Virus record (IMG/VR): IMGVR_UViG_3300046168_000058
Span: 1-64,000 of that record
Source of the DNA: a virus
Length of the DNA: 64,000 nt
Reading direction: 5' to 3' (one strand)
The notes beneath the pieces were generated by a model. The model was not told the origin of the DNA. It saw only the letters and a list, made by a program, of their open reading frames with translations, and did not search any database. Shown here piece after piece: positions 949-60,449 of the stretch. Position 1 is the stretch's first letter, and every line of letters starts with the position of its first letter. The position numbers and the translations under genes were made by a program.

Positions 949-1363
949 TAAAACCGCAGGCACTGTATACGAGTACAAGTTCTTCTCCAGAATTTTGGAG
1001 AAGGGCTATGACTTGTTTATACCTGCGGGTGATAATCTGCCCATCGATTGCATTGTCCAGAACGGGGCAGGAAAGCTCTACAAGGTTCAGATCAAGGGTA
1101 CAGCATCTGAGAATCGTGAAGGAGGTCGCACGGGGAAGAAAAGATATAAAGTTCTGGCGGCGACAGGTCAAAGTTCCAAAACGTCGATAGATTGCACAAA
1201 AGTCGACATATTGGCAGCTTATGTCGAACCGGTGAACACATGGTACATCATTCCATGTCTTGAGATTGGTGCAAAATCAGTGTGGTTTTACCCCCACATT
1301 GAAAATTCACGGTCAATGACGGAGCGATTTAAGGAGGAGTGGGACTTGTTTAAGAAACTTTAA
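941..1363 (+). CDS. PD-(D/E)XK-type nuclease (140 aa)
   Basis: Small protein with a conserved Glu near the N-terminus (VYEYKF), then PID followed by YKVQIKGT. This matches the E...D...QxK active-site pattern of PD-(D/E)XK nucleases such as archaeal Holliday-junction resolvases and PDDEXK_5 proteins. It starts inside the stop region of the helicase gene (8-nt overlap), so the two are probably co-translated and work together in replication or recombination. The 3' end overlaps a convergent small gene by 14 nt. A resolvase or recombination role is inferred; only the fold motif is visible. Confidence 0.7.
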   Translation: MANKTAGTVYEYKFFSRILEKGYDLFIPAGDNLPIDCIVQNGAGKLYKVQIKGTASENREGGRTGKKRYKVLAATGQSSKTSIDCTKVDILAAYVEPVNTWYIIPCLEIGAKSVWFYPHIENSRSMTERFKEEWDLFKKL

Positions 1364-1649
1364 GGTCTTTCACGAAGAATCCTGCGGCCCTAAGCCTAAC
1401 TCTTACGGTCTCTTCGCTTACACCAAGGCATCCAGCAATAATTTTTGGGTGCATACCGCTAAGGAACCTAGCGTAGACCATTGTTTCCCAACGCTTCATG
1501 CGTTTGGACATTCGCATCTGGTCATGCCGAAAAAGATAGCCTTTGGGTTTAGGCTTCTCCTTGGGTGTATTTACATTAAACGCTGTGCGAACTTCGTCAG
1601 CGCTTAGCCCCAGCTTCTCAAGAATCTTGTTTTTCTTTTTCTGACCCAT
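1350..1649 (-). CDS. Small helix-turn-helix protein (99 aa)
   Basis: Basic protein whose C-terminal third (residues about 65-92, IAGCLGVSEETVRVRLRAAG) reads as a helix-turn-helix of the sigma-region-4/LuxR-like type. The N-terminal half is Lys/Pro-rich. It overlaps the upstream gene by 32 nt and is cotranscribed with it from the promoter at 1947-1975. Placement beside the integrase suggests a lysogeny or excision regulator (repressor, Cro or Xis role), but no family was recognised. Confidence 0.6.
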   Translation of the reverse strand: MGQKKKNKILEKLGLSADEVRTAFNVNTPKEKPKPKGYLFRHDQMRMSKRMKRWETMVYARFLSGMHPKIIAGCLGVSEETVRVRLRAAGFFVKDLKVS

Positions 1650-2049: not shown

Positions 2050-2119
2050 ACTACCCGTAGTGTAGGTCCCGCATAAACACTGGACACTATGAAAAAAACA
2101 CACTACATCAACCGAATGA

Positions 2120-2128: not shown

Positions 2129-2133
2129 AACCT

Positions 2134-43080: not shown

Positions 43081-44841
43081 TTAAGGCATCAACCGCTTGT
43101 AATTCTTCTTAATCGATCCTAAAGGAGCCCGCATGAACCCGTCGGGGCACATCATGGATGGATTTTTGCGTAACATCCGATTGCTTATCTTTTTCTTTTT
43201 CGGGGTCTTGAATGTCGTTGCACTGTCAATGTTATACAGGGCGATGGCCGCGGCCAGGACATGATCATCATGATGACCCGGAGCAGCCTCAGGCTTACCC
43301 CGATCATTGATTACAAAAGTTTTGAACTCTTTTAATACATCCGCATCAGGAATATCCACATTTTCCTCGATAATTTCCGAAGCCAGATGGTCTATAACAG
43401 TCTTTCGTGTAATTTTATCCGTAGACCACCCAAAACTCTTCTCAACCATGCCCATAGAATCGTTATATTTACGCCTCCTATAAACAGATAAGCCCATCTC
43501 CAGTAGATACTTTAATAAGGCCAGCCCAGAATTGTTAACTTCAGGGATTACGAACGCATTTCCATAAAATCTAGCAGCCGCTTCGACCTCATGCGCTAAT
43601 ATGCCAATATCTACGCGCGAATGGTGCAATGCAACCAATCGGGGAACATGCCAATTGCCATGCCAATCCTCAAAAGGAGCTCTCCAGACCTGTACAGAAT
43701 GGTAATCCGGATCGGCGGCCAAGCCCTGGGTCTGCTGGTCCTCGCCAGTGCATGTATCCGCAGATATTAAATACTTGGAATCATACTCAGGCTCATCATA
43801 AATCTTCCACATACCAGCCCTATCGGGCGTAAATGAAGCGTTTTTGCTGTCACCCTGAACAGCTAAATTCCCAATACGGCATTTCTGACCGCTACACGCT
43901 CTGTGCATAGACTCAACATTCGCCATATGAAACCTAGGGCGGGATGACATAAGGAAACATTCATCAGGATCCGAAGGATACTCCTGCCGGAACTTACTTA
44001 AATCACCGTTGCACTTGTCCTGGAGGACACGACGACGCCAATGCAGCTGCTCATAGTTAACATCAAACCGTTCCATCTCCTGCTTCTCGTCCTCGGTCAT
44101 CGTATCAATGAAGTCCTGCTTCATATCATCGTTCGCAAACGGTACTACGGAGTCCTCAAATTCAAACCAGGCGGCGAATATCTTGGCCCATTCATTGTCC
44201 TGAACCCATGTCCTATAGAACCAGCCATTCGGACCGTTCGGTGTGGAATCAGCCACAACCAGGGATACCGCATCCCCATCATATAAAGACTGCAAATAAC
44301 CCAGAGCCGGGTCACGCTCGCCCTGCATAGGCCAGAACGCAACCTCCGTCATGTTACCAACCTGGATTGTTCCGCTTCTTCCCGCGTTTTTGGAACCCGC
44401 AGTTTCCTTTCCGTATTGGCTTCTTGTTTTTAGCTTTATCAGATCCGCGAGATTGCCACCGTCCTCCAGGTTTGTTCCTGTACCGTCCCACGGAAAAAGA
44501 TCGTTTTCCGCGTATCTTCGATATATCTCGAAAACTTTGTCCGATGTACCGCTTATGTCCCCCATCAGACTCCCGCTTAAGTTCTCGTACTTTCTCATAT
44601 GATGATATGTCAGGGCTTGCGCGCATGTGCTCGCTCCCTTCTGACGAGGTTTCAGAATGATCATCTTGCATGGGAGACCTTCAATTTGGCATTTTCTGTA
44701 ATGGGCGAACATACGCTTCTGCAGCGTATTGGCTTTTGGTTTGATATCTTTACCACGCTTATCTTTGATTACCGCAAATGTTGAAAACCAGACCTCCGGA
44801 TCAATGCGGATGAGGTCTGCCAGCTGCTCTGAATCACTCAC
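43081..44841 (-). CDS. terL: Terminase large subunit (586 aa)
   Basis: Packaging ATPase and nuclease. Walker A variant KPRQKGAST at residues 64-72, an acidic ATPase region before it continues into VVADSTPNGPNGWFY, and the RNase H-like nuclease residues in LISADTC (about 350), IPEVNNSG (about 425) and HHDDHVLAAAIAL (about 525). Length and motif order are normal. The gene is separated from the small subunit by six tiny genes and one 291-aa gene. Confidence 0.92.
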   Translation of the reverse strand: MSDSEQLADLIRIDPEVWFSTFAVIKDKRGKDIKPKANTLQKRMFAHYRKCQIEGLPCKMIILKPRQKGASTCAQALTYHHMRKYENLSGSLMGDISGTSDKVFEIYRRYAENDLFPWDGTGTNLEDGGNLADLIKLKTRSQYGKETAGSKNAGRSGTIQVGNMTEVAFWPMQGERDPALGYLQSLYDGDAVSLVVADSTPNGPNGWFYRTWVQDNEWAKIFAAWFEFEDSVVPFANDDMKQDFIDTMTEDEKQEMERFDVNYEQLHWRRRVLQDKCNGDLSKFRQEYPSDPDECFLMSSRPRFHMANVESMHRACSGQKCRIGNLAVQGDSKNASFTPDRAGMWKIYDEPEYDSKYLISADTCTGEDQQTQGLAADPDYHSVQVWRAPFEDWHGNWHVPRLVALHHSRVDIGILAHEVEAAARFYGNAFVIPEVNNSGLALLKYLLEMGLSVYRRRKYNDSMGMVEKSFGWSTDKITRKTVIDHLASEIIEENVDIPDADVLKEFKTFVINDRGKPEAAPGHHDDHVLAAAIALYNIDSATTFKTPKKKKISNRMLRKNPSMMCPDGFMRAPLGSIKKNYKRLMP

Positions 44842-45914: not shown

Positions 45915-46790
45915 TTAAGCATTTAGTGGCCCGCGGCCTGTAAATAAACCAGCTGGGCGTTTGTTTTGGACGGTACTCTCAAGAAAGTCTTTAAAATGTT
46001 CTTCATTTTCTTTCATATACTTAAGACCAGGTGATTCACCCTTGGAGTTACGGTTTTGGTAAAGCAACTGTTTCAGGCCATAATCTTGTACATGCCCTCC
46101 CCCTTTTTGAACTTTGTCTAGGATAGCCTTAGCATCATTACGGTTAAATTTATCCGTCCGTCCGCTACCGTCCTTAGGCCAGTTCCTGCGGATGTAGTCG
46201 TGCTTCATATTAGTGAGCTTAGCCCCCATTTCCTTATTTCGGGCTGCATAAGGAAGCTCACCTCCTTGATCCCCAAAATCGCCTTCTATATCGTAGTACT
46301 GACCACCCTCATAAGGCTGTGCCCCATGAACCATTTCTTCAGACATGGGGTTGTATGGGTATTTTTGTTGAAAGCGATTTAAAGGATCTGACCTTAGATG
46401 ATCCAAACCGTATACATGTAACTCGGAAAAAGTTCTACCGGCATCATCTTTAATCGAATCTATAAAAGCTCTTCCACCAATAACATGTCCAGGGCGGCTA
46501 CTGGGCTTCTCTTTAAACGCGTAAGAAGGATTTTTACGGTTCAATGTCCAATCGTCGAGTTTTGGAGCAATCGCTTTATCCTCTTTGGAGTCAAAATCAC
46601 CATATTTAGACCTATTTTGTCTCGCTTCTGAAATAGCGGCGTCTACACCTCCTGGATAACCTTCGTAAAAATCAGATACATACTCTCGATACCCTAAATT
46701 AGCCGTTTTTTCAGGTTTTGGGAACTGATCAAGCTGCTGCTGATTCCTCTTATAAAGAGGTTCAACGGGATAATACTCTTTATCCGCCAT
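45915..46790 (-). CDS. Hypothetical protein between terS and terL (291 aa)
   Basis: Polar, Gly/Asp/Asn/Tyr-rich. One stretch, SEEMVHGAQPYEGGQYYDIEGDFG (about residues 150-172), looks like a degenerate metallopeptidase helix (ExxH) followed by acidic residues, but the first His of HExxH is absent. The C-terminal helices are KFNRNDAKAILDKV and LKYMKENEEHFKDFL. Starts 11 nt inside the end of the small-terminase gene. No family recognised. Confidence 0.6.
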   Translation of the reverse strand: MADKEYYPVEPLYKRNQQQLDQFPKPEKTANLGYREYVSDFYEGYPGGVDAAISEARQNRSKYGDFDSKEDKAIAPKLDDWTLNRKNPSYAFKEKPSSRPGHVIGGRAFIDSIKDDAGRTFSELHVYGLDHLRSDPLNRFQQKYPYNPMSEEMVHGAQPYEGGQYYDIEGDFGDQGGELPYAARNKEMGAKLTNMKHDYIRRNWPKDGSGRTDKFNRNDAKAILDKVQKGGGHVQDYGLKQLLYQNRNSKGESPGLKYMKENEEHFKDFLESTVQNKRPAGLFTGRGPLNA

Positions 46791-47172
46791 TTTCTAATTC
46801 TACAGGTGCTTCCTGCACCGATTCCGAGTAAACATCGACGATTTCGTTCAAATCAACACCTGATTGACGGAATCTGGACATAATTTCGGCCGGTGATATG
46901 ACTTTTGAACTGTTATCATTAACAGTAATCTCTGCCCTGGTGGCCGGTTTACCAAATCCGTACTCCAACATGAGCTTTGCAGCGGTTAATCGGGTCGTAT
47001 GGTTGGGTCTTTCAATATATTCGACCCCTCGCTGCCCATCTGCACGGTTTTGACGCACTGTATGATTGGCTTTTAGGCCATCTCGTAGTGCATTCATAGC
47101 GGCTTCAAAGTCATCATCCTGGATAAACCGGTGAATATCTTCTCTTAACTGTGTAATTTGCTTACTTGGCAT
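46780..47172 (-). CDS. terS: Terminase small subunit candidate (130 aa)
   Basis: The first gene of the late operon. Short helical N-terminus (QITQLREDIHRFIQDDDFEAAMNALRDGL), then NHTTRLTAAKLMLEYGFGKPATRAEITV, a stretch characteristic of small terminase-like proteins of several phage groups. The size is normal and it is separated from terL by about 2 kb of tiny genes. A regulatory role in recognising the packaging site is expected; the adjacent non-coding region is a candidate site. Confidence 0.65.
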   Translation of the reverse strand: MPSKQITQLREDIHRFIQDDDFEAAMNALRDGLKANHTVRQNRADGQRGVEYIERPNHTTRLTAAKLMLEYGFGKPATRAEITVNDNSSKVISPAEIMSRFRQSGVDLNEIVDVYSESVQEAPVELENGG

Positions 47173-47640
47173 AAGGAGTCCTCAATTTAAGTAAGACTAC
47201 TATTTTGGTACCCCCCGTACCACCGGTTGGGGTGCATGGTAAAAAAGGCATTTACGCGGTTTGAGTCTCAAACTACTCGATTTCTACCCCATAACCACTG
47301 TTTTGCAGGATATACCAGGCAGAAGACGGCCTTCCAAAAGATTGTTTTATTTTTTGTGATTGATAGTCGAGTGCGAGTGGTAGTGATAGTTGGTACCCGG
47401 TGGGATGTGGGGGGTAGCTTTGCTAGTCAACGCAGGCTATTGGGCACCAATTAAGCGTCCATGCCGCAAGGCTTTCTCGTAAGCGACTAAGAGTCAACGA
47501 CTTGGGCTCGAGGACGCACAGAATTAAGTATTCGGTTAACGAACAGGAGGTCGAGGGAGGCTGTTTTGTCCCTTGATCCCTGGAAGTCCGTGTGCTGAAT
47601 TTTGTGTGTCAGTGGAGGTCAGGTCAACTTGACTCGGAAC
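47173..47640. other. Non-coding region next to terS: late-operon leader and candidate packaging site
   Basis: About 470 nt without a convincing gene; the one 75-codon frame (47227-47454) lacks a start signal and a protein-like composition. It contains a perfect interrupted palindrome GGTAC-CCCCC-GTACC near 47210 and a G-rich stretch with ggtacccgg and ggggggtag near 47394-47415. Expected contents are the late promoter and leader. A pac or cos site is possible because terS starts at its left edge. No -35/-10 pair was certain. Confidence 0.4.
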
Positions 47641-47675
47641 AAAAAAAGACGCCACAGCCGCGAGGCTGTGACGCT
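47641..47675 (-). terminator. Intrinsic terminator for the 116-aa gene
   Basis: Stem GGCTGTG/CACAGCC (47664-47670 and 47653-47659), 4-nt loop, followed on the minus strand by a run of seven T (47647-47641). It ends the middle-gene transcript before the late region. Confidence 0.75.
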
Positions 47676-47699
47676 TTTGTATACAAGTTTGAGTGATGG

Positions 47700-48050
47700 T
47701 TAGTTAATAACCCAGCTCTTAGACTTACCTTTTTTGACGGCGATGTAACCATCGTCATCAACAAAGAGAGTAAGAACGCATTCCTGTAAGGAATCTTTCT
47801 TAACTTTACGTATCTTGCCAAAGATTCGATCGTCATAAGTGTTGATGGTTTTACCACTCAACGGGCCATGATCGATTTCACAAGTAACAGCGGTGAACTT
47901 GCCTTCACCGTCTTTACGTTTCATCTTCACCACGGCAGTGATGACAGCTGAATGCTGTGGATCTTTAGGATCGAAGATACTAGGATTAACAGAATTTGAA
48001 CTACCGCCACCTGCTGGCGCGGTTCCTTTGTGTATTTTCTTAATAGACAT
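47700..48050 (-). CDS. Hypothetical protein (116 aa), own promoter and terminator
   Basis: N-terminal Gly/Ser-rich tail, then a beta-rich body (HSAVITAVVKMKRKDGEGKFTAVTCEIDHGPLSGKTINTYDD…QECVLTLFVDDDGYIAVKKG). Monocistronic: a terminator lies on each side and the repeated 60-bp element directly precedes its start, which has an AGGT before the ATG. Strong separate expression suggests an abundant product; the composition could fit a small OB-fold or nucleic-acid-binding protein, but this is a guess. Confidence 0.65.
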   Translation of the reverse strand: MSIKKIHKGTAPAGGGSSNSVNPSIFDPKDPQHSAVITAVVKMKRKDGEGKFTAVTCEIDHGPLSGKTINTYDDRIFGKIRKVKKDSLQECVLTLFVDDDGYIAVKKGKSKSWVIN

Positions 48051-48110
48051 ACCTCATGAAATGGGGAAACAATATTAGTAACAGTCACCTTAATGATAGT
48101 AAGCTAGCGG
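48051..48110 (-). promoter_or_regulatory. Repeated ~60-bp promoter-like element, copy A
   Basis: About 80% identical to 55738-55797. On the minus strand the shared sequence is CCGCTAGCT(T)ACTATCATTAA(A)GG, a variable stretch, and TTTCCCCATT.CAT.AGGT. It lies directly before the 116-aa gene and after a terminator, so a promoter is the simplest reading. The part CATTAA(A)GG recalls the initiation region of T7-type phage promoters. Confidence 0.55.
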
Positions 48111-48120
48111 ACTCGGAGTA

Positions 48121-48158
48121 TAAGAAAAGCCCTGCCAGCGGACAAGACTGACAGGGCT
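48121..48158 (-). terminator. Intrinsic terminator of the rII operon
   Basis: Eleven-base stem AGCCCTG(T/C)CAG/CTGGCAGGGCT with one G-T wobble, 9-nt loop, followed on the minus strand by TTTCTTA. It lies 16 nt after the stop of the last gene (117 aa). Confidence 0.75.
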
Positions 48159-48173
48159 TAGTGTTTATATATA

Positions 48174-48527
48174 CTACGAACTGAACAACTGCATAACCAT
48201 AGGATGCAAATATTTTATAGTGTCCATGAACTCATTGTGTTTTGCGAACGATGGTGAACCACCTGTTAACCAGACAGATCCTTGGTCGTGAACCAGAGAA
48301 TAGCTTGTACTAGGAACATCAATTTGAGTATAGCTCCAGTTATTGTGTCCCCATTGTACACGGTAGTGAACATTGTATGCACTTTTAGATATACATACAG
48401 TATCGCGTGGTAGTTCTGGTTTGTTACAACTTGCACTGTGCATAGGTGCTTCAATGTCGTTGAACTTTAGTTTGGCAGCAGTGCCACGATTAGTGGCAAA
48501 GCTGTAAGGTAATGGTGTGTGTTGCAT
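48174..48527 (-). CDS. Hypothetical protein (117 aa)
   Basis: Beta-rich with aromatic residues (YNVHYRVQWGHNNWSYTQIDVPSTSYSLVHDQG). It begins right after rIIA (4-nt gap) and has no Shine-Dalgarno; a near copy of the leader 9-mer (ACACACACC) lies just inside the coding start. No family recognised. Confidence 0.55.
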   Translation of the reverse strand: MQHTPLPYSFATNRGTAAKLKFNDIEAPMHSASCNKPELPRDTVCISKSAYNVHYRVQWGHNNWSYTQIDVPSTSYSLVHDQGSVWLTGGSPSFAKHNEFMDTIKYLHPMVMQLFSS

Positions 48528-48531
48528 GATA

Positions 48532-50661
48532 TTAGATGGTTACTGCGTTGATGTATTTATGGATGTGATTGGCGATATCGTTTTTGTTTTCTGCCCAGGT
48601 TCTGATGGTGACAGTGTCAAGCAATGGATAGTTTCGCGTCATGTATTCCGACATATCTTTGAGGTATTCAGAACGCTCAACTAGTTTTAGTCTGTATAAA
48701 ACAGAGAACAGATTGGTGAGGTTGTATCTGTCAGATAGTTGAGTTTGCCCGTGATAGTAACTTGAATTTTTGTGGTAGTGTACTAATACACGACCGTAAT
48801 TCGCGATGTCTTGATTGTCACAATTTACAATTATGTCAGCTAACTCTCGGTCATAGTTGGAGTGAGTGTCTTTTGATGTAACTTGTGCATACAATTTAGA
48901 TTGATCAGGATTAGCTTTTTCCCATGTTGCAAACAATTCTGCGATATATGCATCAAGTGTAATCCATTTGTTATCAAGTTTTTTGACATGATGTTTTTTG
49001 ACACCGTGAATGACAGGAGTAAGCGTGCTTAAATTAGACATATCAGACAGGAAGCGTATAGCTTTTTGTATTTGCTCAAGATAATCGAGCCAGTCTTCGT
49101 GGCCTTGCCAATCGAAGCGATCGAGTGGGACATATACAAAGCGTCCGTCAGCCATTGCTGTAGTTGGAGCTTCTTTAGATAATCTAGCAGACTTGAGTGT
49201 GTTAGGGCTAAGTGTACATACATTTACACGAACAGGTTTTTGTGTATTGCCGTTGGTGATAGTGCTGGCTGTACGGTTAGCTTTGAGTGGTTCGATATTA
49301 TCGAGATCTATGTAATCACCTGGTATCAGTTTAGGTTCAACATAATCAAGACGGCTACGAGGAATGACATAGTATCTTTCCATTTGTGGATTCTTAGATT
49401 CATGCTGAAGCGTGCGTATGCGTCGAGTGGCATTGTTGTTAGCAATCTTGTCATCTGAATATACACAAAGTTTGGTGTATTTGGTTAGTGATGTAGACAC
49501 TGCATCACCTGATTTGTTGCGCCATACATTGTCAGAAGATCGCCATGATTTCTGTTGCTCATGCATTCTGATGCTGGTTGTACCGAACTTTATTGATGAT
49601 ATGAGTGGAAGGCCGCGCCATGTGCATTTTGATACAATAGATTTATGTATGCCGCCAGGTATCAAGGCAGCGTATTTATCTGCTGTGATGGATGCTTGAA
49701 CACGAGAAGTTGCTGCTTTAACGCTTTTGTTAGTGCGGTTTACAAGATCAAGTAGCATGTTATTTGTCATTGCGACAAGTGCATTGCGTGTACGATCGGT
49801 GTACTCGAGAGATTCACGATTGGCAGCTATGTCGACAGCACCAAGTGGTGCGTATAGAATAACACTGTTGGCTTGAGCTAACGATCCGGCATCGCTGTTA
49901 ATGTTTAGTTGATTGTAATCAATCGGATAGCATATGTTACCCATGACAAGACTCGCACCGCCGTAGTGACGACCGTGACGGTATTGGTTTGAATCTTCGA
50001 ATGATTGCAGTGCCCAGTCATCGGTTGATTCAACAATATTTATATCAATTAGTTTTTCATTCGATGTAGGTTTGACACGCCAGTATTTGAAGAACTGATG
50101 TGCTTTGCTGATGCATGAGTTGATGTCATCTTTGCGTATAGCTACGATAACTTCAGTACCTGTTGGTCTGTTGATGTTATCAATTTTGCTGATCATTGAT
50201 ATTGTACCGCGTTTGGATTCATCAATCCGTGCATGCCATGTTGTGATGTGTGATCGGGTAAAGCTGACGACTTGGAAGTCATCACCGTATGCGAAGCCAG
50301 CTTTGCAACCGATACCAAGGCAACCTGTGTAATCGTTTGATGATCGCTTAGTTGATGCACCGTATTTGACATACAGATTGCAAACATCGTCATCAGATAA
50401 ACCCTTGCCGAAGTCACGGAATGATAGTTCTGGTTTTGCAATGGTTGGTAGTTGTACATCAATTGGATTGTCGTTGCCTGCTTCGATGTTGGCGTCAGCT
50501 GCATTGGTGCTGTATTCACGAATGACAGCGAGTAGTTTGTCGGAGTATATTTGTGAACGAAGAATACCCATGATGTGAGATAAGTCAGATTCTTCGATGC
50601 CGAAGTCAGCGGCTTTTGTTATGTTAGTGCTGTAGTTAGATGTATTAGTTGATAATTTCAT
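48532..50661 (-). CDS. rIIA: RIIA-like protein, GHKL ATPase (709 aa)
   Basis: T4 rIIA-like membrane-integrity/exclusion protein with a GHKL (Hsp90/MutL) ATPase fold. N-box REYSTNAADA (Glu 49, Asn 53), DFGKG (83-87) and glycine box GCLGIGCKAG (113-122), then a long C-terminal region. Start placed at the internal Met (50661, MKLSTNTSNY) because the longer frame (to 50763) adds a low-quality segment and runs through the leader element. In T4, rIIA and rIIB lie together and counter prophage Rex; here rIIB is directly upstream in the transcript. Confidence 0.85.
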   Translation of the reverse strand: MKLSTNTSNYSTNITKAADFGIEESDLSHIMGILRSQIYSDKLLAVIREYSTNAADANIEAGNDNPIDVQLPTIAKPELSFRDFGKGLSDDDVCNLYVKYGASTKRSSNDYTGCLGIGCKAGFAYGDDFQVVSFTRSHITTWHARIDESKRGTISMISKIDNINRPTGTEVIVAIRKDDINSCISKAHQFFKYWRVKPTSNEKLIDINIVESTDDWALQSFEDSNQYRHGRHYGGASLVMGNICYPIDYNQLNINSDAGSLAQANSVILYAPLGAVDIAANRESLEYTDRTRNALVAMTNNMLLDLVNRTNKSVKAATSRVQASITADKYAALIPGGIHKSIVSKCTWRGLPLISSIKFGTTSIRMHEQQKSWRSSDNVWRNKSGDAVSTSLTKYTKLCVYSDDKIANNNATRRIRTLQHESKNPQMERYYVIPRSRLDYVEPKLIPGDYIDLDNIEPLKANRTASTITNGNTQKPVRVNVCTLSPNTLKSARLSKEAPTTAMADGRFVYVPLDRFDWQGHEDWLDYLEQIQKAIRFLSDMSNLSTLTPVIHGVKKHHVKKLDNKWITLDAYIAELFATWEKANPDQSKLYAQVTSKDTHSNYDRELADIIVNCDNQDIANYGRVLVHYHKNSSYYHGQTQLSDRYNLTNLFSVLYRLKLVERSEYLKDMSEYMTRNYPLLDTVTIRTWAENKNDIANHIHKYINAVTI

Positions 50662-50716
50662 AGTATTTATAGTTGTTGTGTGAGTTGAGCAGTTTGTTGA
50701 CATGCTCAGGTCATAT

Positions 50717-50725
50717 GGTGTGTGG
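50717..50725 (-). promoter_or_regulatory. CCACACACC leader element upstream of rIIA
   Basis: The element, followed by ATATGA, lies 55 nt upstream of the rIIA start, in the gap after and just inside the end of rIIB. The same 17-nt string (AACCACACACCATATGA, allowing for the flanking base) recurs at 55857-55873. Confidence 0.45.
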
Positions 50726-51682
50726 TTAGGATGGAAGTTCCATGAATCTGATTGTGAAATCATTCATGTGATTATCGAAGCCGAAGTCGGCGTGGTAGTG
50801 ACTTTGATCTATTATGCAGTCACGGATATCAGACATACCTACATTTGGGAATGCATGTTGTACTTCTCGGAAGTAAACAGGTACATCATTATGGACACGA
50901 GCATCAAGCCAGTCAAACAATGCATTGCTGTCAACTGATGAAACACCGTAGCCACCGTTGTTGAGTTTAGCGCGGCTGGTATTTTCTGCGATGACTGTAT
51001 ATTTGCATACACGCAGTTTACCGTAATCACATTCGTTAGGTACAGATACGATGTCTGCTGGACTATATTCGACAGTCATTAGTTTGCCATCGTCACCAGC
51101 CCATGAGTCAGCATAGTCATGTGAACCTACATGGAAGCCTGATGAGCAGCCGTGATCTGGGTTGTCGTCAACACCAGACCGAGGCATTGATAGTACTTGG
51201 CCGACGCTGTTGTCGAACTTGCCAGAGTATTTATCTTTGTAGTCATCACGCACACCTTTGTAACCGATGAGATTACCTGTTTTATTCATGGGCATACCGC
51301 TGTGTTTGATGAAGTTGTATGCTTGCTGACGACAGTTGTACGATGGATTGTCGTGCAACTTTTCGATGAAGCGAAACCAGCGATCAATGTCGCTTGCACC
51401 TTCTGATACAAGGTCGATTAGTTTTTGTGCTTCTGCTGAATGAAGCTTGTTGCCATCAAGGAATACTTTGTTACCGCGAACAGTAACGCGTCCGTTAGAT
51501 ACAGACTTGAGAACATTTGATTCATCAAGTAGATCGCGAACGGTTTCTTCATCACCTTTTTTGATTGCATCAATTAATGGACGGTAGTTCATTCGGTCAC
51601 TGGTGATAGTGACGGCGTTATGGTTTATGAGATCGTGTACGAATACAGATTCATCTTGGTATGAGTATGCTATATTATTCAT
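50726..51682 (-). CDS. rIIB: RIIB-like protein (318 aa)
   Basis: Conserved rIIB block: MPMNKTGNLIGYKGVRDDYKDKYSGKFDNSVGQVLSMPRSGVDDNPDHGCSSGFHVGSHDYA (about residues 130-195). An upstream region with repeat-like helices (RPLIDAIKKGDEETVRDLLDES) and DNA-binding-like C-terminal segment follow the family. The start is set at 51682 because its ATG overlaps the preceding stop (ATGA). Partner of rIIA. Confidence 0.85.
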   Translation of the reverse strand: MNNIAYSYQDESVFVHDLINHNAVTITSDRMNYRPLIDAIKKGDEETVRDLLDESNVLKSVSNGRVTVRGNKVFLDGNKLHSAEAQKLIDLVSEGASDIDRWFRFIEKLHDNPSYNCRQQAYNFIKHSGMPMNKTGNLIGYKGVRDDYKDKYSGKFDNSVGQVLSMPRSGVDDNPDHGCSSGFHVGSHDYADSWAGDDGKLMTVEYSPADIVSVPNECDYGKLRVCKYTVIAENTSRAKLNNGGYGVSSVDSNALFDWLDARVHNDVPVYFREVQHAFPNVGMSDIRDCIIDQSHYHADFGFDNHMNDFTIRFMELPS

Positions 51683-52458
51683 AGATATTTTGCCCAATAT
51701 AGGCTGTTTGGTTGATTTTGGATTTGGTCCCAGAATATGTTGCGAGCAATTACTGGTGGGACATCGTATGCTTTGGATAGCATAAGCCAGTAGTTCTCGT
51801 AGTAGTGGTATTGTGCTGGTGAACCTGATTTGTCAGGGTCGAGCCAACCGAATGCTTTCCACATGTGACGATCGATGCATATGACTTGAGCAGTCAATGG
51901 GTAGATCATCTCGAGTGCGAAGCTGGTTTTAGCTAGACCAAGCTTGGGCAGGTTATCTGTAATGACATTGCGGAAGCGTTGCCATTGAACACTGTTTTGT
52001 TTTACGAATATGTTGGAGTCCCATAGTTCGTGTAGCTTGTCGATACCGACAGCTTTGATATTGTACATACCGCCAGGTGTATCTTTGAGTATACTAGACA
52101 GTTGGTTCAGCGATACATTATCGTATAGATTACGAATAGCATCATACTGAATACAACTGTTGAGCCAGCTTGTGTGTACTGTGCAGTATGCAAAGCGGAA
52201 GCGATTGATTTCTTCGTGATCAGACCGAGGACGCAAGTCAATCCATTGATTGATATAGCGTGCTTTAGTATACGGTGTAATACTAGCGAAGAACTTTGTT
52301 ATACGCTTACGATGCACACGAGGTATTTGCACGATACCCTGTCCACCCCGATAGCTTGAGAAGCGTAAGCGCTTTGCTGGCTTCGCTGCCCGCTGGTTGG
52401 GTGCCGTGAATAAGTTGAGCGAAGTCTGGTCCGCGTTTGTATGCGTGTGAGTCGTCAT
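51679..52458 (-). CDS. DNA glycosylase-like protein, HhH-GPD superfamily candidate (259 aa)
   Basis: GLAKTSFALEMIYPLTAQVICIDRHMWKAFGW (about residues 180-212) matches the helix-hairpin-like segment and catalytic Asp (CIDRHM) of HhH-GPD-related proteins seen in T4-like and marine phages. The first Met (52458) makes a 152-nt overlap with GP88; a GTG at 52317 in the same frame would leave an 11-nt overlap and remove 47 low-complexity residues. Base-excision or modified-base role is inferred. Confidence 0.6.
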   Translation of the reverse strand: MTTHTHTNADQTSLNLFTAPNQRAAKPAKRLRFSSYRGGQGIVQIPRVHRKRITKFFASITPYTKARYINQWIDLRPRSDHEEINRFRFAYCTVHTSWLNSCIQYDAIRNLYDNVSLNQLSSILKDTPGGMYNIKAVGIDKLHELWDSNIFVKQNSVQWQRFRNVITDNLPKLGLAKTSFALEMIYPLTAQVICIDRHMWKAFGWLDPDKSGSPAQYHYYENYWLMLSKAYDVPPVIARNIFWDQIQNQPNSLYWAKYL

Positions 52459-53071
52459 TGTCGATTTCTAGTCCTTTTTTGTTAGCTTCTTGTTTTGAGT
52501 ATACAACTTGAGCAGATTTTAGATTATGGGTTGTGATGAGGTGGTCATGTTTACCGCCCCATGATGCATTGAGTTCGAAGTTGGATGGAATGTGTTCCAT
52601 GTTAGCAACCCATAGATCAATGCGTTTAGTGTAGCTGTAGAACCAAGTTGGTGCAAAGGCACGAGCTAGATCACACCAAGCCAAGAAGTAGGATTGGTTG
52701 AAGAAGTCGCCACCTATGTGTGCGCGTACAATAGGTCGTTGTTGATGGTTACGGTGATAGTTATCGTGCAGCGGTCGTAGACTGTTGAACAATAGCTTGA
52801 ACATTTGTTTCCTACTTTTCTTTCGTAATAGAAGGAAGTTGTTCCATCGTTGTTTGCGTATAGCTGAGTGACGAGCTTCCATAGTTGCTGCATAGCATCT
52901 GAACTTGGTTGAGTCGCCATCTGTGATTTTACCGGTTGTTTGGTCAGCTTTTGACAGACATTCGTCTGCCGCCGGGCACGAGTGTCCTGACGGCAGACTG
53001 AGATGTTTGATTCTGTCTGGTAACTTTGCGTTACTAGCTGACCAGCGTAACGTTGTGTTAGCTGATGTCAT
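52307..53071 (-). CDS. GP88-family protein (254 aa)
   Basis: Matches the 'gene product 88' family of mycobacteriophages and plasmids: HLSLPSGHSCPAADECLSKAD…FRCYAATMEARHSAIRKQRWNNF, IGGDFFNQSYFLAWCDLARAF and the C-terminal FAQLIHGTQPAGSEASKAL. Cys residues near the N-terminus (SCPAADEC, FRC) suggest a metal cluster. Function unknown. It starts with AAATACTATG, without Shine-Dalgarno. Confidence 0.85.
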   Translation of the reverse strand: MTSANTTLRWSASNAKLPDRIKHLSLPSGHSCPAADECLSKADQTTGKITDGDSTKFRCYAATMEARHSAIRKQRWNNFLLLRKKSRKQMFKLLFNSLRPLHDNYHRNHQQRPIVRAHIGGDFFNQSYFLAWCDLARAFAPTWFYSYTKRIDLWVANMEHIPSNFELNASWGGKHDHLITTHNLKSAQVVYSKQEANKKGLEIDNDDSHAYKRGPDFAQLIHGTQPAGSEASKALTLLKLSGWTGYRANTSCAS

Positions 53072-53270
53072 AGTATTTATTTATTTTAGGTGAGTATAGC
53101 GTGCTACATTGTAAACAGGGCGTTGTACCATATGTAGACTTTTGTTTGTTACATATAGGACAGCGACTTAAGCTGTTTATTTTGTAGTAAGTTGCTGTTG
53201 CTTCTCGTATCTCTGCAGGTGTGTATTTAGCACGGTTGCCAAGAATTTTTAGAGCACGAGCATAACTCAA
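53058..53270 (-). CDS. Small zinc-finger-like protein (70 aa)
   Basis: RCPICNKQKSTYGTTPCLQC: two CxxC pairs 12 residues apart, typical of a zinc ribbon; the N-terminal half is helical (YTPAEIREATATYY). It overlaps GP88 by 14 nt and starts one base after the DUF932 stop, so it lies within the operon. Confidence 0.65.
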   Translation of the reverse strand: MSYARALKILGNRAKYTPAEIREATATYYKINSLSRCPICNKQKSTYGTTPCLQCSTLYSPKINKYYDIS

Positions 53271-54056
53271 TTAGTTGAGTTGAAGCTGTGATTGAATTGT
53301 ATCAGCTGGGTTAGTTAGTTGTACATTGCAGAAACGATCGAACACTTTGTGCAATGCGATACCGCGTTGTGCTGAGTTAGCGATTGAGGTTCTACATTCT
53401 TTGTGAATTTCAGTGAATGCATTGAATGCAGACCAGGCATTGCGATCAGCAAATGCATCGTGTCGTGGATCAAGGTATTCAGTATGTACTTTTTCAGCTT
53501 TGCTTTGAGGTAGTGCACCGTTGATGATAGCGTCACCTAGTATTTGGTAGAAGTTATTCATAGATAGTTCTGTTTCCATATACTTGTTGAAGCGGGTCTC
53601 GTTGTTTGACCATGTCTGTACTACTTGATCGAGCATGTTTGATACACGATTGTTGAAGTTAGTGTGTACATGTTTGGTATGTTTGCTGGAGATTATGTGA
53701 TCACCAGTGAAGTAACCATTTGAACATACAAGCACTTGGCCACCTGAACATGCGGATGCGCCGAAGCGTTTGTTGTGACTGTTACGAATGCCGAGCATGT
53801 TACGATAGACACCGTTTTCGCTTTCCATATACATGGTAGCAAACATGTCAGGATGTGGTTGGCGTACTTTATTTTCTACTACATCAACAATTTGATACTT
53901 GAGTTCATCAATATGAAGATCGCGTTTTTCTGCTTGCTCAATGACAGTTGTCATAACCTCATGATGCGGCATTGGTTGCCAAGTAGCAGTAGGTGCTGGC
54001 GTTGATATTTGTGTTAATCCGTTGAAGTCAACGGTGCGTGAGTTATTTAGTTTCAT
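53271..54056 (-). CDS. DUF932 family protein (261 aa)
   Basis: GIRNSHNKRFGASACSGGQVLVCSNGYFTGDHIISSKHTKHVHTN (about 90-135) is the hallmark of the DUF932/YfjQ-like family, common in phages, plasmids and defence-associated islands; biochemical function unknown. Length is typical of the short phage form. The start lacks a Shine-Dalgarno and has the CCACACACC element 28 nt upstream. Confidence 0.85.
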   Translation of the reverse strand: MKLNNSRTVDFNGLTQISTPAPTATWQPMPHHEVMTTVIEQAEKRDLHIDELKYQIVDVVENKVRQPHPDMFATMYMESENGVYRNMLGIRNSHNKRFGASACSGGQVLVCSNGYFTGDHIISSKHTKHVHTNFNNRVSNMLDQVVQTWSNNETRFNKYMETELSMNNFYQILGDAIINGALPQSKAEKVHTEYLDPRHDAFADRNAWSAFNAFTEIHKECRTSIANSAQRGIALHKVFDRFCNVQLTNPADTIQSQLQLN

Positions 54057-54062
54057 AATCTG

Positions 54063-54290
54063 TTATGCTATTACTGTTTTGGTTGGTGTGTGGTATATTG
54101 TTTCAGCCCAGCCACGCATTACGATGTGTGGTTGTGACTTGTTATGATGCGATTCGATAGGCACATCGCATTTGATGTTTGTCGTTAGTAGACATTTGTT
54201 TTTGTAGTGCAACGACAGGCACTTGTGTTGTTTGTTGTAGTGAAAGAAGAACCGACGATGATTGCTGCTAGGCCGACATAGCGATGACAT
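54063..54290 (-). CDS. Hypothetical Cys/His-rich protein (75 aa)
   Basis: Cys/His/Asn-rich (HYNKQHKCLSLHYKNKCLLTTNIKC), ending in MRGWAETIYHTPTKTVIA. It begins 23 nt inside the previous gene and ends 6 nt before DUF932. The leader element for DUF932 (54085-54093) lies within its last codons, so the C-terminus could be partly regulatory DNA. Confidence 0.5.
   Translation of the reverse strand: MSSLCRPSSNHRRFFFHYNKQHKCLSLHYKNKCLLTTNIKCDVPIESHHNKSQPHIVMRGWAETIYHTPTKTVIA
54085..54093 (-). promoter_or_regulatory. CCACACACC leader element upstream of DUF932 gene
   Basis: Exact 9-mer 28 nt before the DUF932 start codon, in the sense orientation, followed by AACCAAAACAG. Confidence 0.4.
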
Positions 54291-54654
54291 TGTTTGGTAT
54301 GGGTTGAGTTGTTGTTGTCAGGTCGATGTGTTGAGCGATTGGTATAGGTGTAACAACGCATTCGACACCATGCAGACGCACTGAAGTGATAGTGTCGAGG
54401 TTGAGATTACGGTAGCCGCGTTCAGCTTCGAAGGTGTGTCCATCCATGGTCCACATTAGATATATTGATATATATGAATGTTTTAGACTTGGAGGCATGC
54501 CAGTACCTTTGATGTGCTTGGTTACTCCAAGTCGTGCATTTGCGCAGCGTTCTGTTCCATCTTTTTTAGTCCAACATACATTGAATATTTTGCCACGCGT
54601 AGTAAGTAGCAATTGTTCAAGTTTTGAACGGTGTATAATTATTGGTTTGTCCAT
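54268..54654 (-). CDS. Small phage protein, WYL-like SH3 character (128 aa)
   Basis: The start is set at the ATG at 54654 (MDKPIIIHRSKLEQL) because the longer frame runs through the previous gene. GKIFNVCWTKKDGTERCANARLGVTKHIKGTG is a motif shared by many small, uncharacterised phage early proteins, read as a short beta-hairpin-rich domain. C-terminal part: YISIYLMWTMDGHTFEAERGYRNLNLDTITSVRLHG. Function unknown. Confidence 0.65.
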   Translation of the reverse strand: MDKPIIIHRSKLEQLLLTTRGKIFNVCWTKKDGTERCANARLGVTKHIKGTGMPPSLKHSYISIYLMWTMDGHTFEAERGYRNLNLDTITSVRLHGVECVVTPIPIAQHIDLTTTTQPIPNNVIAMSA

Positions 54655-54664
54655 GTAGTGTGTA

Positions 54665-55231
54665 TTAGTTTGAGGTTGAGAACTTTTGCCAGATTTCAGT
54701 ATCGAGACTGCTGACAGATTTGTCTTGTTGTGCAGCAAGCCCAATGAACATAGCTTCGAGGCGTTTGTATTCATCGAGATCTTGCGGTGTTTGTTCTGGT
54801 ATTGGATACTTAGGGAACTGTTGCTGTAAGTATCGCAAAATGTGTACATCAAGTACTGCAATGTCTTCGTATGGACGGCTATGCAGAACAAAGAAGGATG
54901 CAGTTTTGGGACCGATACCTGGTATGTTTTGCATTAGCTCATCGCGATGTACTTTGAAGAACTGACCATACGGTTTGTATTGACTGATTTTACGCCAACA
55001 AGCTGACAGTCTTTTGTACTGACCAATGCGTGCATTCCGAAGTGCAGCAGTGATAGTGCGACCGTCTTTGTTGAGTAGATCAGATGGTTTGATTGATGTG
55101 AATATACTGTTGAATGCAGGTGTAATAGTCTGAGACTTTTTACCTGGAGTTACAGTACACCACAGAAGGAATAGCAGTAGCTCTTCAAGCGACCGTTTTT
55201 CTTTGGTTATGTTGTTGTAGTCGATTTGCAT
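54665..55231 (-). CDS. HhH-GPD DNA glycosylase / endonuclease III-like (188 aa)
   Basis: Helix-hairpin-helix IPGIGPKTASFFVLHS followed by the catalytic-Asp segment IAVLDVHILRYL, as in thermostable 8-oxoguanine glycosylases and EndoIII. A Lys (GPKTAS) occupies the usual bifunctional-lyase position. It would cut out damaged or modified bases. It is the second glycosylase-like gene in the operon. The start lies 3 nt after a CCACACACC element. Confidence 0.8.
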   Translation of the reverse strand: MQIDYNNITKEKRSLEELLLFLLWCTVTPGKKSQTITPAFNSIFTSIKPSDLLNKDGRTITAALRNARIGQYKRLSACWRKISQYKPYGQFFKVHRDELMQNIPGIGPKTASFFVLHSRPYEDIAVLDVHILRYLQQQFPKYPIPEQTPQDLDEYKRLEAMFIGLAAQQDKSVSSLDTEIWQKFSTSN

Positions 55232-55234
55232 GAT

Positions 55235-55243
55235 GGTGTGTGG
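55235..55243 (-). promoter_or_regulatory. CCACACACC leader element of the HhH-GPD gene
   Basis: Exact 9-mer immediately before the start codon (CCACACACC-ATC-ATG), in the 17-nt gap after the preceding gene; no Shine-Dalgarno is present. Confidence 0.55.
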
Positions 55244-55248
55244 TTGGA

Positions 55249-55677
55249 TTAGTTGGCCGCGGGTTTGTATTCGTTGGCATTAGGACGAGCCATTGCACCG
55301 GTCATACCATTGATTAGGAAGAATGCTTGCTGCATACCTTTACCAAGCATTTTGTACTCTGGTGTCTTGATGTAGAAGTTTTCGCGTAGAATGCGTTCAT
55401 CAAATTCTGACATGTTATCGAACATGTGTTTCATTTGACTCATGACTACTTCAAGCGTGTGAGACATGATCTTGGATTGGAACTCAATGGTCTGTTGTTT
55501 GTACGCATTGAATTCGTCTACACCTACGCGTTCCCATAGTGGTTTATGGTTTAGTTCATTGAGTGTGAGCCGTTGCTCTTTCGTTAGCGGTTTTGGCACG
55601 ATTAAATCTACTTCGTTATATATTTGTAGTAGGTTGCCTAGTTGTTGCTCTGATGTGATAGTGATTTGTTCGTTCAT
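55249..55677 (-). CDS. Hypothetical helical protein (142 aa), first gene of the rII operon
   Basis: Mostly alpha-helical (KPLTKEQRLTLNELNHKPLWERVGVDEFNAYKQQTIEFQSKIMSHTLEVVMSQMKHMF) and acidic/neutral; no family recognised. First cistron of the leftward operon, about 60 nt downstream of the repeated promoter-like element. No Shine-Dalgarno before the ATG (ACATACAGCTATG). Confidence 0.6.
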   Translation of the reverse strand: MNEQITITSEQQLGNLLQIYNEVDLIVPKPLTKEQRLTLNELNHKPLWERVGVDEFNAYKQQTIEFQSKIMSHTLEVVMSQMKHMFDNMSEFDERILRENFYIKTPEYKMLGKGMQQAFFLINGMTGAMARPNANEYKPAAN

Positions 55678-55737
55678 AGCTGTATGTAGTTGTTAGTGAT
55701 TTGTAGTATGTAACAGGGATATATTTACACCTATTAC

Positions 55738-55797
55738 ACCTGATGGAATGGGGAAAAAATATAGAGCAACTAACCTTTAATGATAGTAGCTAGCGGA
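55738..55797 (-). promoter_or_regulatory. Repeated ~60-bp promoter-like element, copy B
   Basis: Matches 48051-48110 closely. It lies 61 nt upstream of the first gene of the rII operon, in the same orientation relative to transcription. Minus-strand core: CTAGCTACTATCATTAAAGG. Confidence 0.55.
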
Positions 55798-55841
55798 TGA
55801 TCCGTATTGACAAAGGCTAAGCCTTTAAGTAAAAGTCTAAA

Positions 55842-55871
55842 TATTAGTTGATAATCTCATATGGTGTGTGG
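55842..55871 (-). repeat. Copy of the rII leader joined to the first codons of rIIA
   Basis: Minus strand: CCACACACC-ATATGA followed by GATTATCAACTAATA. Compare rIIA, whose leader has CCACACACC-ATATGA and whose gene opens ATGAAATTATCAACTAATA. The short copy encodes only MRLSTNI before a stop. It looks like a truncated duplicate or a micro-ORF upstream of the operon promoter. Confidence 0.5.
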
Positions 55872-55886
55872 TTATTTTCTATTTTA

Positions 55887-58293: not shown

Positions 58294-58478
58294 AAGAAAG
58301 TCAAATTATTGAACAGCTAAAGGATCGGGTAATCCATTTGGAGAGTACCGTCAAGGTCCTGCGTGGATTGATCGGTAGGCTCGACAGCCGTCTCGATCAT
58401 ACGGACGAGAAGCTTAAATACCAGAGACCACAAACAACTGCGGATTCGAATGAGGACCGCGTAACCCGATTCATCTGA
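58290..58478 (+). CDS. Small coiled-coil protein (62 aa)
   Basis: Residues 5-45 form a heptad-rich coiled coil (IIEQLKDRVIHLESTVKVLRGLIGRLDSRLD). ATGA overlap upstream and TGATG overlap downstream. Likely an oligomerisation partner in the operon; no family recognised. Confidence 0.55.
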   Translation: MKESQIIEQLKDRVIHLESTVKVLRGLIGRLDSRLDHTDEKLKYQRPQTTADSNEDRVTRFI

Positions 58479-58985: not shown

Positions 58986-59285
58986 ATGGATATTAATAAA
59001 AAGTACGAACAGTTACTTACTAACCTTGAGCTTTGGGCTGAAACCCTTGCGACCCGTGGCCCAAAGGCTGTGGACGATGTCATGGGGGAGATGTACGATG
59101 AGGTAAAGGTTTACGCCGATGAGCTTGAGCCAAGACTCCCTGCCCTATCGCTTAAGGAGAAACTGCTTCAGGTCAGAAAGCAATTAACTAAAGAGCTTGG
59201 CGAGGAGCCGACAGATGAAGTCCTTGCGAGTGAGATGAATTTACCCGGCGGTGTCAGCACCGTCAGAACTGTTTTATCATTGTGA
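58986..59285 (+). CDS. Sigma70 region-3-like protein (99 aa)
   Basis: The C-terminal half (about residues 56-98) LKEKLLQVRKQLTKELGEEPTDEVLASEMNLPGGVSTVRTVLSL aligns with sigma70 region 3 (…ELGREPTPEELAERMxMPxxxIRKVL), including the EPT and LA..M signatures. No region 2 or 4 is attached; the N-terminal half is acidic and helical. Strong Shine-Dalgarno AGGAGG with 9-nt spacing. A separate region-4-like protein is encoded 670 bp downstream. It could bind host RNA polymerase or DNA. Confidence 0.7.
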   Translation: MDINKKYEQLLTNLELWAETLATRGPKAVDDVMGEMYDEVKVYADELEPRLPALSLKEKLLQVRKQLTKELGEEPTDEVLASEMNLPGGVSTVRTVLSL

Positions 59286-59897: not shown

Positions 59898-59958
59898 ATT
59901 GTCCAAAATGCGAGAGCAAGACCGAGGTATTGGAAACACGGAAGACGGTGTATTATGA
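59695..59958 (+). CDS. Coiled-coil protein (87 aa)
   Basis: MTQKIGNIIEQMQTTMDGMLERLAKLEGALVALKQSRKP: heptads over 40 residues, then an acidic domain (SSEDADIRFIARKVAENELSKMRE). Good Shine-Dalgarno GGAGG with 12-nt spacing. Ends with ATGA overlap with the region-4 frame (59955). Confidence 0.6.
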   Translation: MTQKIGNIIEQMQTTMDGMLERLAKLEGALVALKQSRKPSVYIDEQTALLSSEDADIRFIARKVAENELSKMREQDRGIGNTEDGVL

Positions 59959-60142
59959 CGCGGTCAAAAGAAGACGCGAATGCCCTAGTTGCGGACACCG
60001 CTTCACAACGAAAGAGTGCTCGCAGGAAAAATTCAAAGAGCTCCTCTTCGTCAAAGAAGAGCTCCTCGAAGCGCGTGCCAAAATCCGAGGACTCGAAAGC
60101 TTTAAGCGAAAAATACTTGGAACCGCCCTTACCGTTTCCTAA
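59894..60142 (+). CDS. NrdR-like zinc ribbon protein (82 aa)
   Basis: MNCPKCESKTEVLETRKTVYYDAVKRRRECPSCGHRFTTKE is a zinc ribbon of the NrdR N-terminal type (CPxC…CPSCGHRF); the ATP-cone of true NrdR is absent and replaced by a helical tail. Phages often carry such single ribbons as transcription or DNA-binding accessories. It overlaps two other frames: the coiled-coil gene end and the region-4 gene start. Confidence 0.75.
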   Translation: MNCPKCESKTEVLETRKTVYYDAVKRRRECPSCGHRFTTKECSQEKFKELLFVKEELLEARAKIRGLESFKRKILGTALTVS

Positions 60143-60449
60143 CAACACGAAGGAAGATCAGACCAATGCCGATGTACGTTTATCTGAGTTTATGCGTGGT
60201 GAGCGTACTGTGCTGTTTAATGGCGAAGAGCATGTCTATGATTCGGAAGGTATGCGGACTTATACGCTTGAGGAGGTTGGCACCATTATGGGAGTCACTC
60301 GGGAGCGTGTCCGTCAGATTGAGGAAACAGGTATACGGAAAATGTGGCGTGCTTTTGACATCATGTGCAAGCGCGAGGGAGTCACTAAAGAAGAATTTAT
60401 GGGGATGTTATTAGGTGGAAACGATGAAGCAACAGTCTACATGCCCTAA
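59955..60449 (+). CDS. Sigma70 region-4-like protein (up to 164 aa)
   Basis: YTLEEVGTIMGVTRERVRQIEETGIRKMWRAF (about residues 101-132) is a classical sigma70 region 4.2 HTH that recognises -35 elements. The ATG at 59955 overlaps the previous stop (ATGA), but its first 63 residues (Ser/Lys/Arg-rich) are overprinted by the zinc-ribbon gene. A later start (ATG 60192) would leave an 85-aa region-4 protein. No region 2 or 3 is attached. Partner of the region-3-like protein upstream is an inference. Confidence 0.75.
   Translation: MTRSKEDANALVADTASQRKSARRKNSKSSSSSKKSSSKRVPKSEDSKALSEKYLEPPLPFPNNTKEDQTNADVRLSEFMRGERTVLFNGEEHVYDSEGMRTYTLEEVGTIMGVTRERVRQIEETGIRKMWRAFDIMCKREGVTKEEFMGMLLGGNDEATVYMP

What the first reader, a model, noticed from the sequence alone, without database searches (positions are those of the whole stretch)
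48051..55797. A ~60-bp element repeated upstream of two leftward transcription units
48051-48110 and 55738-55797 share about 80% identity, including gctagc, aatgatagt and atggggaaa blocks; both lie just upstream of a first cistron, in the same orientation. The CATTAA(A)GG core resembles T7/T3-type promoter initiation regions. No phage RNA polymerase was recognised in the window, so it may be a middle promoter for a modified host polymerase (possibly using the sigma-like proteins) or for a polymerase encoded elsewhere.
Basis: partly seen in the sequence, partly recalled or inferred. Interest (0 to 1): 0.58.

Follow-up and report, generated by a model that had tools for sequence, protein, structure and literature searches.

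The report
Phage promoter with folded RNA leader
The repeated stretch is a conserved start signal for two leftward gene blocks in a group of uncultured phages, and in relatives the first RNA made from it folds into a three-armed shape; it does not look like the T7-style signal first suspected.

Summary
The two copies are real: 51 of 63 aligned columns identical, local score 36.5 against at most 18 in 2000 shuffles, and no third copy in the 68,374-base record. Relatives show two separable parts. (1) A DNA core, GCTAGC-(1-2 nt)-ACTATCAT, at both operon starts. Of 18 relatives fully covering the copy-1 site, 15 have it with at most one mismatch, none on the other strand; the other 3 keep ACTATCAT but change the first block. 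Spacer length is position-specific: 1 nt in 11 of 11 copy-2-type sites, 2 nt in 28 of 29 copy-1-type. Post-core letters agree between the two sites of a genome (p 4e-5). (2) In some relatives a leader RNA forms a three-way junction with strong covariation; in the window it is degenerate and not significant. T7/T3 promoter: not supported; no RNA_pol match in 11 records, while T7 rings. A sigma region-4 protein is conserved (9 of 11). Best reading: phage-specific promoter plus leader. Unexpected: ACTATCA recurs on the sense strand every ~0.8 kb through the module in 12 of 12 genomes. No transcript data exist.

The parts
48051..48110 (-). copy 1 (class B) of the 60-bp element
48093..48108 (-). 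class B core GCTAGCTTACTATCAT (2-nt spacer)
   Evidence: conserved in 15 of 18 fully covered relatives
48052..48066 (-). P2 hairpin remnant CCCCAT-TTC-ATGAGG containing a Shine-Dalgarno-like GAGG, next to the ATG at 48050
   Evidence: E 0.87; not significant by folding energy
55738..55797 (-). copy 2 (class A) of the 60-bp element
55780..55794 (-). class A core GCTAGCTACTATCAT (1-nt spacer)
   Evidence: 11 of 11 class A sites have the 1-nt spacer
55692..55774 (-). copy 2 leader: P1 arms 55774-55769/55697-55692, P2 55753-55739 (imperfect), P3 55738-55709
   Evidence: model R1 hit E 0.56, weak in this genome
48127..48159 (-). intrinsic-terminator-like hairpin ending the rII operon just upstream of copy 1
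47649..47674 (-). intrinsic-terminator-like hairpin between the first gene after copy 1 and the terminase region
47361..47390 (-). two ACTATCA 23 nt apart in a conserved noncoding block upstream of ORF 46780-47172
55807..55812 (+). TTGACA, -35-like hexamer of a possible divergent rightward promoter
   Evidence: read directly; the consensus scan did not list it
55249..55677 (-). first ORF after copy 2
   Evidence: no PHROG match
47700..48050 (-). first ORF after copy 1
   Evidence: no match
50726..51697 (-). rIIB-like protein
48532..50763 (-). rIIA-like protein
43081..44841 (-). terminase large subunit, query for relatives
59955..60449 (+). sigma-70 region-4-like protein, candidate trans factor
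   Evidence: (PF04545 4.3e-9), conserved
58986..59285 (+). weak sigma-70 region-3-like protein
   Evidence: 3.3e-5, under cut-off; region-3 matches at E<=0.01 in 4 of 11 records
1350..1649 (-). small HTH protein (PHROG 'anti-termination Q-like' 2.4e-4; PF04545 0.0024, under cut-off), candidate repressor or late regulator
   Evidence: weak r4-like matches in 7 other records too, kinship not tested

Best explanation
Each copy is the start signal of a leftward transcription unit: a phage-specific promoter core, GCTAGC-N(1-2)-ACTATCAT, followed by the beginning of a transcribed leader. Shown by comparison: conservation at both operon starts, co-orientation, tandem copies, a spacer rule by position, within-genome agreement of the letters after the core, and a downstream RNA three-way junction in a number of relatives. 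Inferred: host RNA polymerase reads the core, with WACTAT as a -10-like hexamer, CATNNA as discriminator and the start near the following purine. Also inferred: a phage factor acts at the GCTAGC block in place of a -35; the conserved sigma region-4-like protein is the first candidate. Copy 2 would start the rII module; copy 1, with the other spacer, would start the unit before terminase. The leader, where intact, most likely acts in cis at the RNA level. Antitermination resembling HK022 put is my first guess (about 35% of this reading), because copy-1 transcripts meet a strong terminator after one gene; translational or stability control is next.
For: Core at the syntenic place in 15 of 18 fully covered relatives with <=1 mismatch, 0 of 18 on the opposite strand; the 3 misses carry CCAG(A/G)G-N-ACTATCAT. 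Spacer 1 nt in 11 of 11 class A and 2 nt in 28 of 29 class B sites. Tandem cores at class A in L121, L124, L201 and at class B in L058, L169. A-B agreement of the 6 post-core letters in 11 genomes, p 4e-5, with G020 at 0 of 6. Leader P1: own arms pair better than swapped arms, 0 of 20,000 permutations. A covariance model from five class B leaders finds class A leaders with unrelated P1 letters (1.3e-5, 2.9e-5, 0.034) and, without knowing the core, a new leader in L169 with two cores just upstream. 16 of 23 pairs change on both sides, 0 of 500 shuffles. In class B units the core is squeezed between a terminator and the leader, so little room is left for another promoter.
Against: No RNA data. 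The spacer varies by 1 nt, odd for one rigid protein-DNA interface. The sigma region-4-like protein keeps an RERVRQIE helix expected, from recalled knowledge, to read TTGACA-like sites, not GCTAGC. In the window neither leader folds better than shuffles (z -0.66 and +0.70). Ten of the 15 core-bearing, fully covered relatives have no P2-like leader within 100 nt. ACTATCA also occurs in many non-promoter places.
Confidence: 0.6

Rival explanations
1. Operator and stoperator reading: ACTATCAY is the asymmetric site of a phage repressor. It sits at the promoters (A, B and the block before terminase) and every ~0.8 kb along the module, and halts initiation and elongation in the lysogen.
For: Same octamer at promoters and along the units, always in the transcribed direction (146 to 0 in 12 segments); selected beyond codon use; spacing more even than random. 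Integrase-like genes in 8 of 11 records; small HTH gene near the integrase. Stoperators are asymmetric and follow transcription (PMC9283540, passages).
Against: No repressor shown; sites are 7-8 bp and often inside genes; enriched in one module only; GCTAGC, the spacer rule and the leader are left unexplained, so it may be an addition to the promoter reading rather than a rival.
Confidence: 0.2
2. Promoter of a T7-like single-subunit RNA polymerase encoded by the phage or elsewhere.
For: Contiguous, nearly identical pair within a genome, with letters that co-vary between genomes; ACTAT occurs in T7-family promoters (recalled).
Against: No RNA_pol match in 11 records with T7 as positive control; letters around a +1 GG not conserved; spacer differs by 1 nt between the two sites; the 3879-aa ORF shows no such motif.
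Confidence: 0.07
3. The core is transcribed: a sigma-70 promoter lies upstream, and GCTAGC/ACTATCAT act in RNA, for example as an antitermination or processing signal.
For: Weak sigma-70 match TTGTCC-17-TATACT at 48145-48117 would start near 48110. ACTATCAC also lies in terminator hairpins of relatives.
Against: The scan finds 14 sigma-70-like sites against 23.7 in shuffles; TATACT is not kept in relatives; tandem cores and variable upstream distance fit a DNA signal better.
Confidence: 0.1
4. Duplicated recombination linker without regulatory role.
For: Sits at module boundaries; same orientation.
Against: Core kept while flanks diverge; spacer rule; compensatory changes in the leader.
Confidence: 0.03

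Closest known systems
HK022 put RNA sites (PMC9378689, passages read)
   Same: Two related ~60-70-nt structured RNAs, one at the start of each of two major transcripts; putL lies just downstream of its promoter.
   Different: put is two stem-loops; this is a closed three-way junction; no sequence likeness shown; antitermination untested here; no Rfam match.
T4 late promoters with gp55 and gp33 (recalled; search listing only)
   Same: Short -10-like octamer used by host polymerase with phage sigma-like proteins.
   Different: Here an extra GCTAGC block; the conserved phage protein has region 4 with its DNA-contact helix; no credible region-2 protein found.
Mycobacteriophage L5 operators and stoperators (PMC9283540, passages read)
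   Same: Asymmetric sites at promoters and along the genome, oriented with transcription.
   Different: L5 sites are 13-mers in promoters and short intergenic spaces; here 7-8 bp, also in genes, enriched in one module.
T7-family promoters (recalled)
   Same: Share ACTAT; pairs nearly identical within a genome.
   Different: No such polymerase found; initiation letters not conserved; variable spacer.
Lambda-type Q with its binding element in the late promoter (PMC6606751, abstract start in search listing)
   Same: A phage protein acting at a promoter-embedded site to pass terminators would fit the layout.
   Different: Only a weak PHROG match; no pause element tested.

Membership tests
T7-type single-subunit polymerase promoter | cognate single-subunit RNA polymerase in the genome | tested here: not met
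   PF00940: 0 of 11 records, T7 positive; records are classed linear and may be incomplete
T7-type single-subunit polymerase promoter | fixed spacing and conserved initiation region | tested here: not met
   spacer 1 versus 2 nt; post-core letters differ between genomes
sigma-70 promoter | -35 and -10 hexamers at 16-18 nt at this place | tested here: not met
   none listed with WACTAT as -10; an overlapping weak match is not kept in relatives
T4-late-type promoter | -10-only element read through a phage region-2 protein | tested here: inconclusive
   -10-like WACTAT present; PF04542 in 1 of 11 records, weak (0.0016) and inside a 3825-aa frame
put RNA | put sequence or fold | tested here: not met
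   different fold; no Rfam family matched; no direct alignment with put was run
put RNA | cis antitermination | not testable with these tools
   needs transcription assay
stoperator system | asymmetric sites oriented with transcription, at promoters and along units | tested here: met
   for ACTATCA; enriched in one module only
stoperator system | repressor that binds the sites | not testable with these tools
   candidate HTH ORF 1350-1649 only

The most novel reading that the evidence does not exclude
One octamer, ACTATCAY, is both the heart of the two promoters and a polar landmark repeated about every 0.8 kb through the 8-13 kb module they control, in genes and between them. Sites are gained and lost while the spacing is kept. 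Read by one phage factor, it would set where transcription starts and how far it runs (stoperator-like or processivity sites), together with a new three-way-junction leader RNA at the 5' end of the transcripts.
Probability: 0.25. Interest if true: 0.85.

Novelty: new variant of a known kind. Interest (0 to 1): 0.62.

Why it matters
It gives an uncultured phage group, seen in many environmental contigs, a readable map of its two main leftward start signals, a candidate factor to test, and a covarying phage leader RNA that no Rfam 15 family matched. If the recurrent ACTATCAY is bound by one factor, it would be a rare case of control distributed evenly along an operon, and a very short motif would make its targets predictable in metagenomes.

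Tried and rejected
T7/T3-type promoter: rejected as above. The first RNA_pol search had an empty control, so it was repeated with T7 added.

Giant 3879-aa ORF as a virion RNA polymerase: a DxDxD-type pattern was sought in all ORFs and not found in it; T7 motif-B also absent. PHROG matches are of unknown function. This is motif evidence only; no fold was predicted.

ACTATCAC in genes as mere Thr-Ile-Thr codons: my first reading, dropped because the motif occurs in all three frames and beats synonymous-codon shuffles. Caveat kept: inside one genome other 7-mers reach similar scores (in the window's module it ranks seventh, z 3.8), so the strength lies in a motif fixed in advance by the core and found in 12 of 12 genomes.

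Genome-wide strand purge of the reverse motif: in right arms 0 seen against 3.2 expected, with 27 of 210 anagrams equally low, so not significant; late region 0 against 16.2, with only 5 of 210 anagrams that low, but the loci are homologous. Chi-like, packaging-site and type III restriction ideas were considered and left untested.

SD-sequestering uORF in the leader: an AUG follows P2 in several class B leaders but not in L164, L169 or L196 (read by eye); not kept.

One search's four-mismatch synteny test was too lax (25 of 62 on the opposite strand, and five loci whose TerS start lies outside were sliced wrongly); replaced. A search for another clade's motif in G019 found no standout.
Full report
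Setting. The window is bases 1-64,000 of a 68,374-base IMG/VR virus record classed linear. Leftward genes fill about 3.2-55.7 kb: structural genes, portal, a 3879-aa ORF, terminase, then an rII module with rIIA- and rIIB-like proteins. Rightward genes fill about 56-68.4 kb: resolvase, weak sigma region-3-like and region-4 proteins, helicase, DNA polymerase. An integrase-like ORF lies at 2089-3264. No near DNA relative of the queried stretches is in the phage collection, and the portal has no tblastn match there. Terminase finds 80 kept relatives of 127 in viral contigs, which made comparison possible. ORF 46780-47172 is called TerS below by position only; no family matched it at a useful level.

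The observation. Confirmed and well above chance. The core pattern finds exactly two places in the record.

The core. Across relatives the conserved part is GCTAGC, one or two bases, then ACTATCAT. At the copy-1 place (class B), 18 of the 80 terminase loci hold at least 2.5 kb upstream of TerS. Of these, 15 have the core with at most one mismatch, 0 of 18 have it on the other strand, and the three misses (L063, L064, L080) have CCAG(A/G)G-N-ACTATCAT. Of 39 loci with less upstream DNA, 10 have it and 0 have it antisense. The remaining loci had no TerS match (18 of 80) or a TerS start outside the locus (5). Copy-2-type (class A) cores occur at the start of the rII operon in L119, L121, L124, L126 and others, sometimes in tandem; G003 has the CCAGAG variant at both places. 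A scan of viral contigs with the exact core gave 113 stretches, many judged chance because no gene of the group was found near them. The 40 distinct 60-mers with gene evidence split cleanly: class A, 11 of 11 with a 1-nt spacer; class B, 28 of 29 with a 2-nt spacer, the exception being L187, from G020. In 11 genomes with both sites, the six letters after the core agree within a genome more than across genomes: 46 of 66 against a permutation mean of 30.4, p 4e-5; G020 agrees in 0 of 6. Shared change of two sites in one genome points to a common reader or to conversion between the copies.

The leader. Downstream of a number of cores lies TTTCC-NN-ATTNCATNNGG. Folding of relatives gives a three-way junction: P1 closing, P2 with a 3-nt loop, P3 (z -5.5 L124, -4.4 L164, -5.4 L196, -4.7 L017, -3.4 L045, -2.7 L259, -2.4 L005; the L017 and L259 minimum-energy folds are not the simple junction). 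P1 arms pair with their own partner far better than with others: mean -12.1 against -7.5 kcal/mol, 0 of 20,000 permutations, for 21 leaders with the P2 pattern out of 86 distinct sites, one leader counted twice because of tandem cores. A covariance model from five class B leaders returned 20 matches at E<=1 in 50 sources I chose. These include class A leaders with different P1 letters and a new one in L169 whose upstream DNA, read afterwards, carries two degenerate cores; the weakest match (L045 minus, E 0.76) is antisense and probably false. On the resulting alignment (15 distinct rows, seeds and that weak match included, fitted to the model and so leaning towards it) 95.5% of cells pair and 16 of 23 pairs change on both sides, with 0 of 500 shuffles reaching any of the five measures. 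No Rfam family matched the window or the six relatives scanned in a meaningful way. Against this: in the window the two leaders are poor folders (z -0.66, +0.70), although in an unfiltered scan of 9 kb they are the top two matches of the model (E 0.56 and 0.87). Ten of the 15 core-bearing fully covered loci have no P2-like leader within 100 nt. Core and leader are therefore separable modules.

Who reads it. The Pfam RNA_pol model finds nothing in 11 records of the group and finds T7. The sigma region-4 model passes its cut-off in 9 of 11; a second, weaker r4-like match appears in 8 of 11, in the window at 1350-1649(-), which PHROGs liken to a Q-type antiterminator at 2.4e-4; that these weak matches are one family was not tested. 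Region 2 was not found in a credible place. Host polymerase redirected by a phage factor is thus the simplest reading, but the link between factor and core is inference.

Why antitermination is my first guess for the leader. A strong terminator-like hairpin (47674-47649) stands after the single gene that follows copy 1 and before the terminase region, and in relatives several such terminators follow one another. The layout recalls HK022 putL and putR. A separate promoter in the conserved noncoding block before TerS is an equally open alternative.

The recurrent ACTATCA. In 12 module segments (121 kb) ACTATCA is the commonest 7-mer: 146 on the sense strand and 0 antisense, against an anagram mean of 17.1. 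In coding DNA 101 occur against 26.2 (sd 4.7, maximum 39 of 300) after synonymous shuffling. Each of the 12 genomes alone exceeds its shuffles: at least as many in 0-6 of 1000 for eleven, 29 of 1000 for G007. Of 422 aligned comparisons with homologues under 75% identity, 46 share the site. Gaps (places closer than 60 nt merged) average 814 nt with coefficient of variation 0.51 against 0.93 for random placement, 0 of 5000 as even. The late operon of the window is not clearly enriched (5 against 2.5), nor is the more distant record G019 (2 sites). Caveats: the genomes are related, ORF calls are mechanical, and within one genome other 7-mers score alike. The function is unknown; stoperator-like sites fit best among known things.

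Literature. Searches for stoperators, put, T4 late promoters, regularly spaced strand-specific phage motifs, leader RNAs in uncultured marine phages and the letters ACTATCAT returned no description of this element in their listings; the library holds only openly licensed papers. That the group is marine is an impression, not tested by any search; hosts are unknown.

Noticed in passing
47361-55787 (-), and the same module in relatives: ACTATCA(T/C) recurs on the sense strand about every 0.8 kb, never antisense in the 12 segments counted, beyond codon use, with position turnover. Unexplained.
   Followed up: partly
50711-50728 and 55857-55874 (-): Exact 18-nt repeat TAACCACACACCATATGA: rII-module genes seem to start after CCACACACC instead of a Shine-Dalgarno sequence; ACACACC is frequent between genes in relatives (44 of 80 intergenic).
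   Followed up: partly
47172-47640 (-): Conserved noncoding block before ORF 46780-47172 with GGTACC, two ACTATCA 23 nt apart and a run of A; present in many relatives. Possibly the promoter or packaging region.
   Followed up: no
L011, L015, L023, L027, L040, L051 and others: Intrinsic terminators of relatives often carry ACTATCAC in the hairpin (CCTCGATACTATCACGGTATCGAGG) and are followed by T-run plus CCGAGTC.
   Followed up: no
58986-59285 and 59955-60449 (+): Separate small ORFs resembling sigma region 3 (weak) and region 4; perhaps pieces of a split sigma factor.
   Followed up: partly
29438-41077 (-): 3879-aa ORF with an HEAGH metalloprotease-like motif (recalled pattern) and a C-terminal part related to giant phage proteins of unknown function.
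   Followed up: no
58478-58972 (+): ORF matching the 23S rRNA intervening-sequence protein family (PF05635, 1.1e-15), seemingly unusual for a phage.
   Followed up: no
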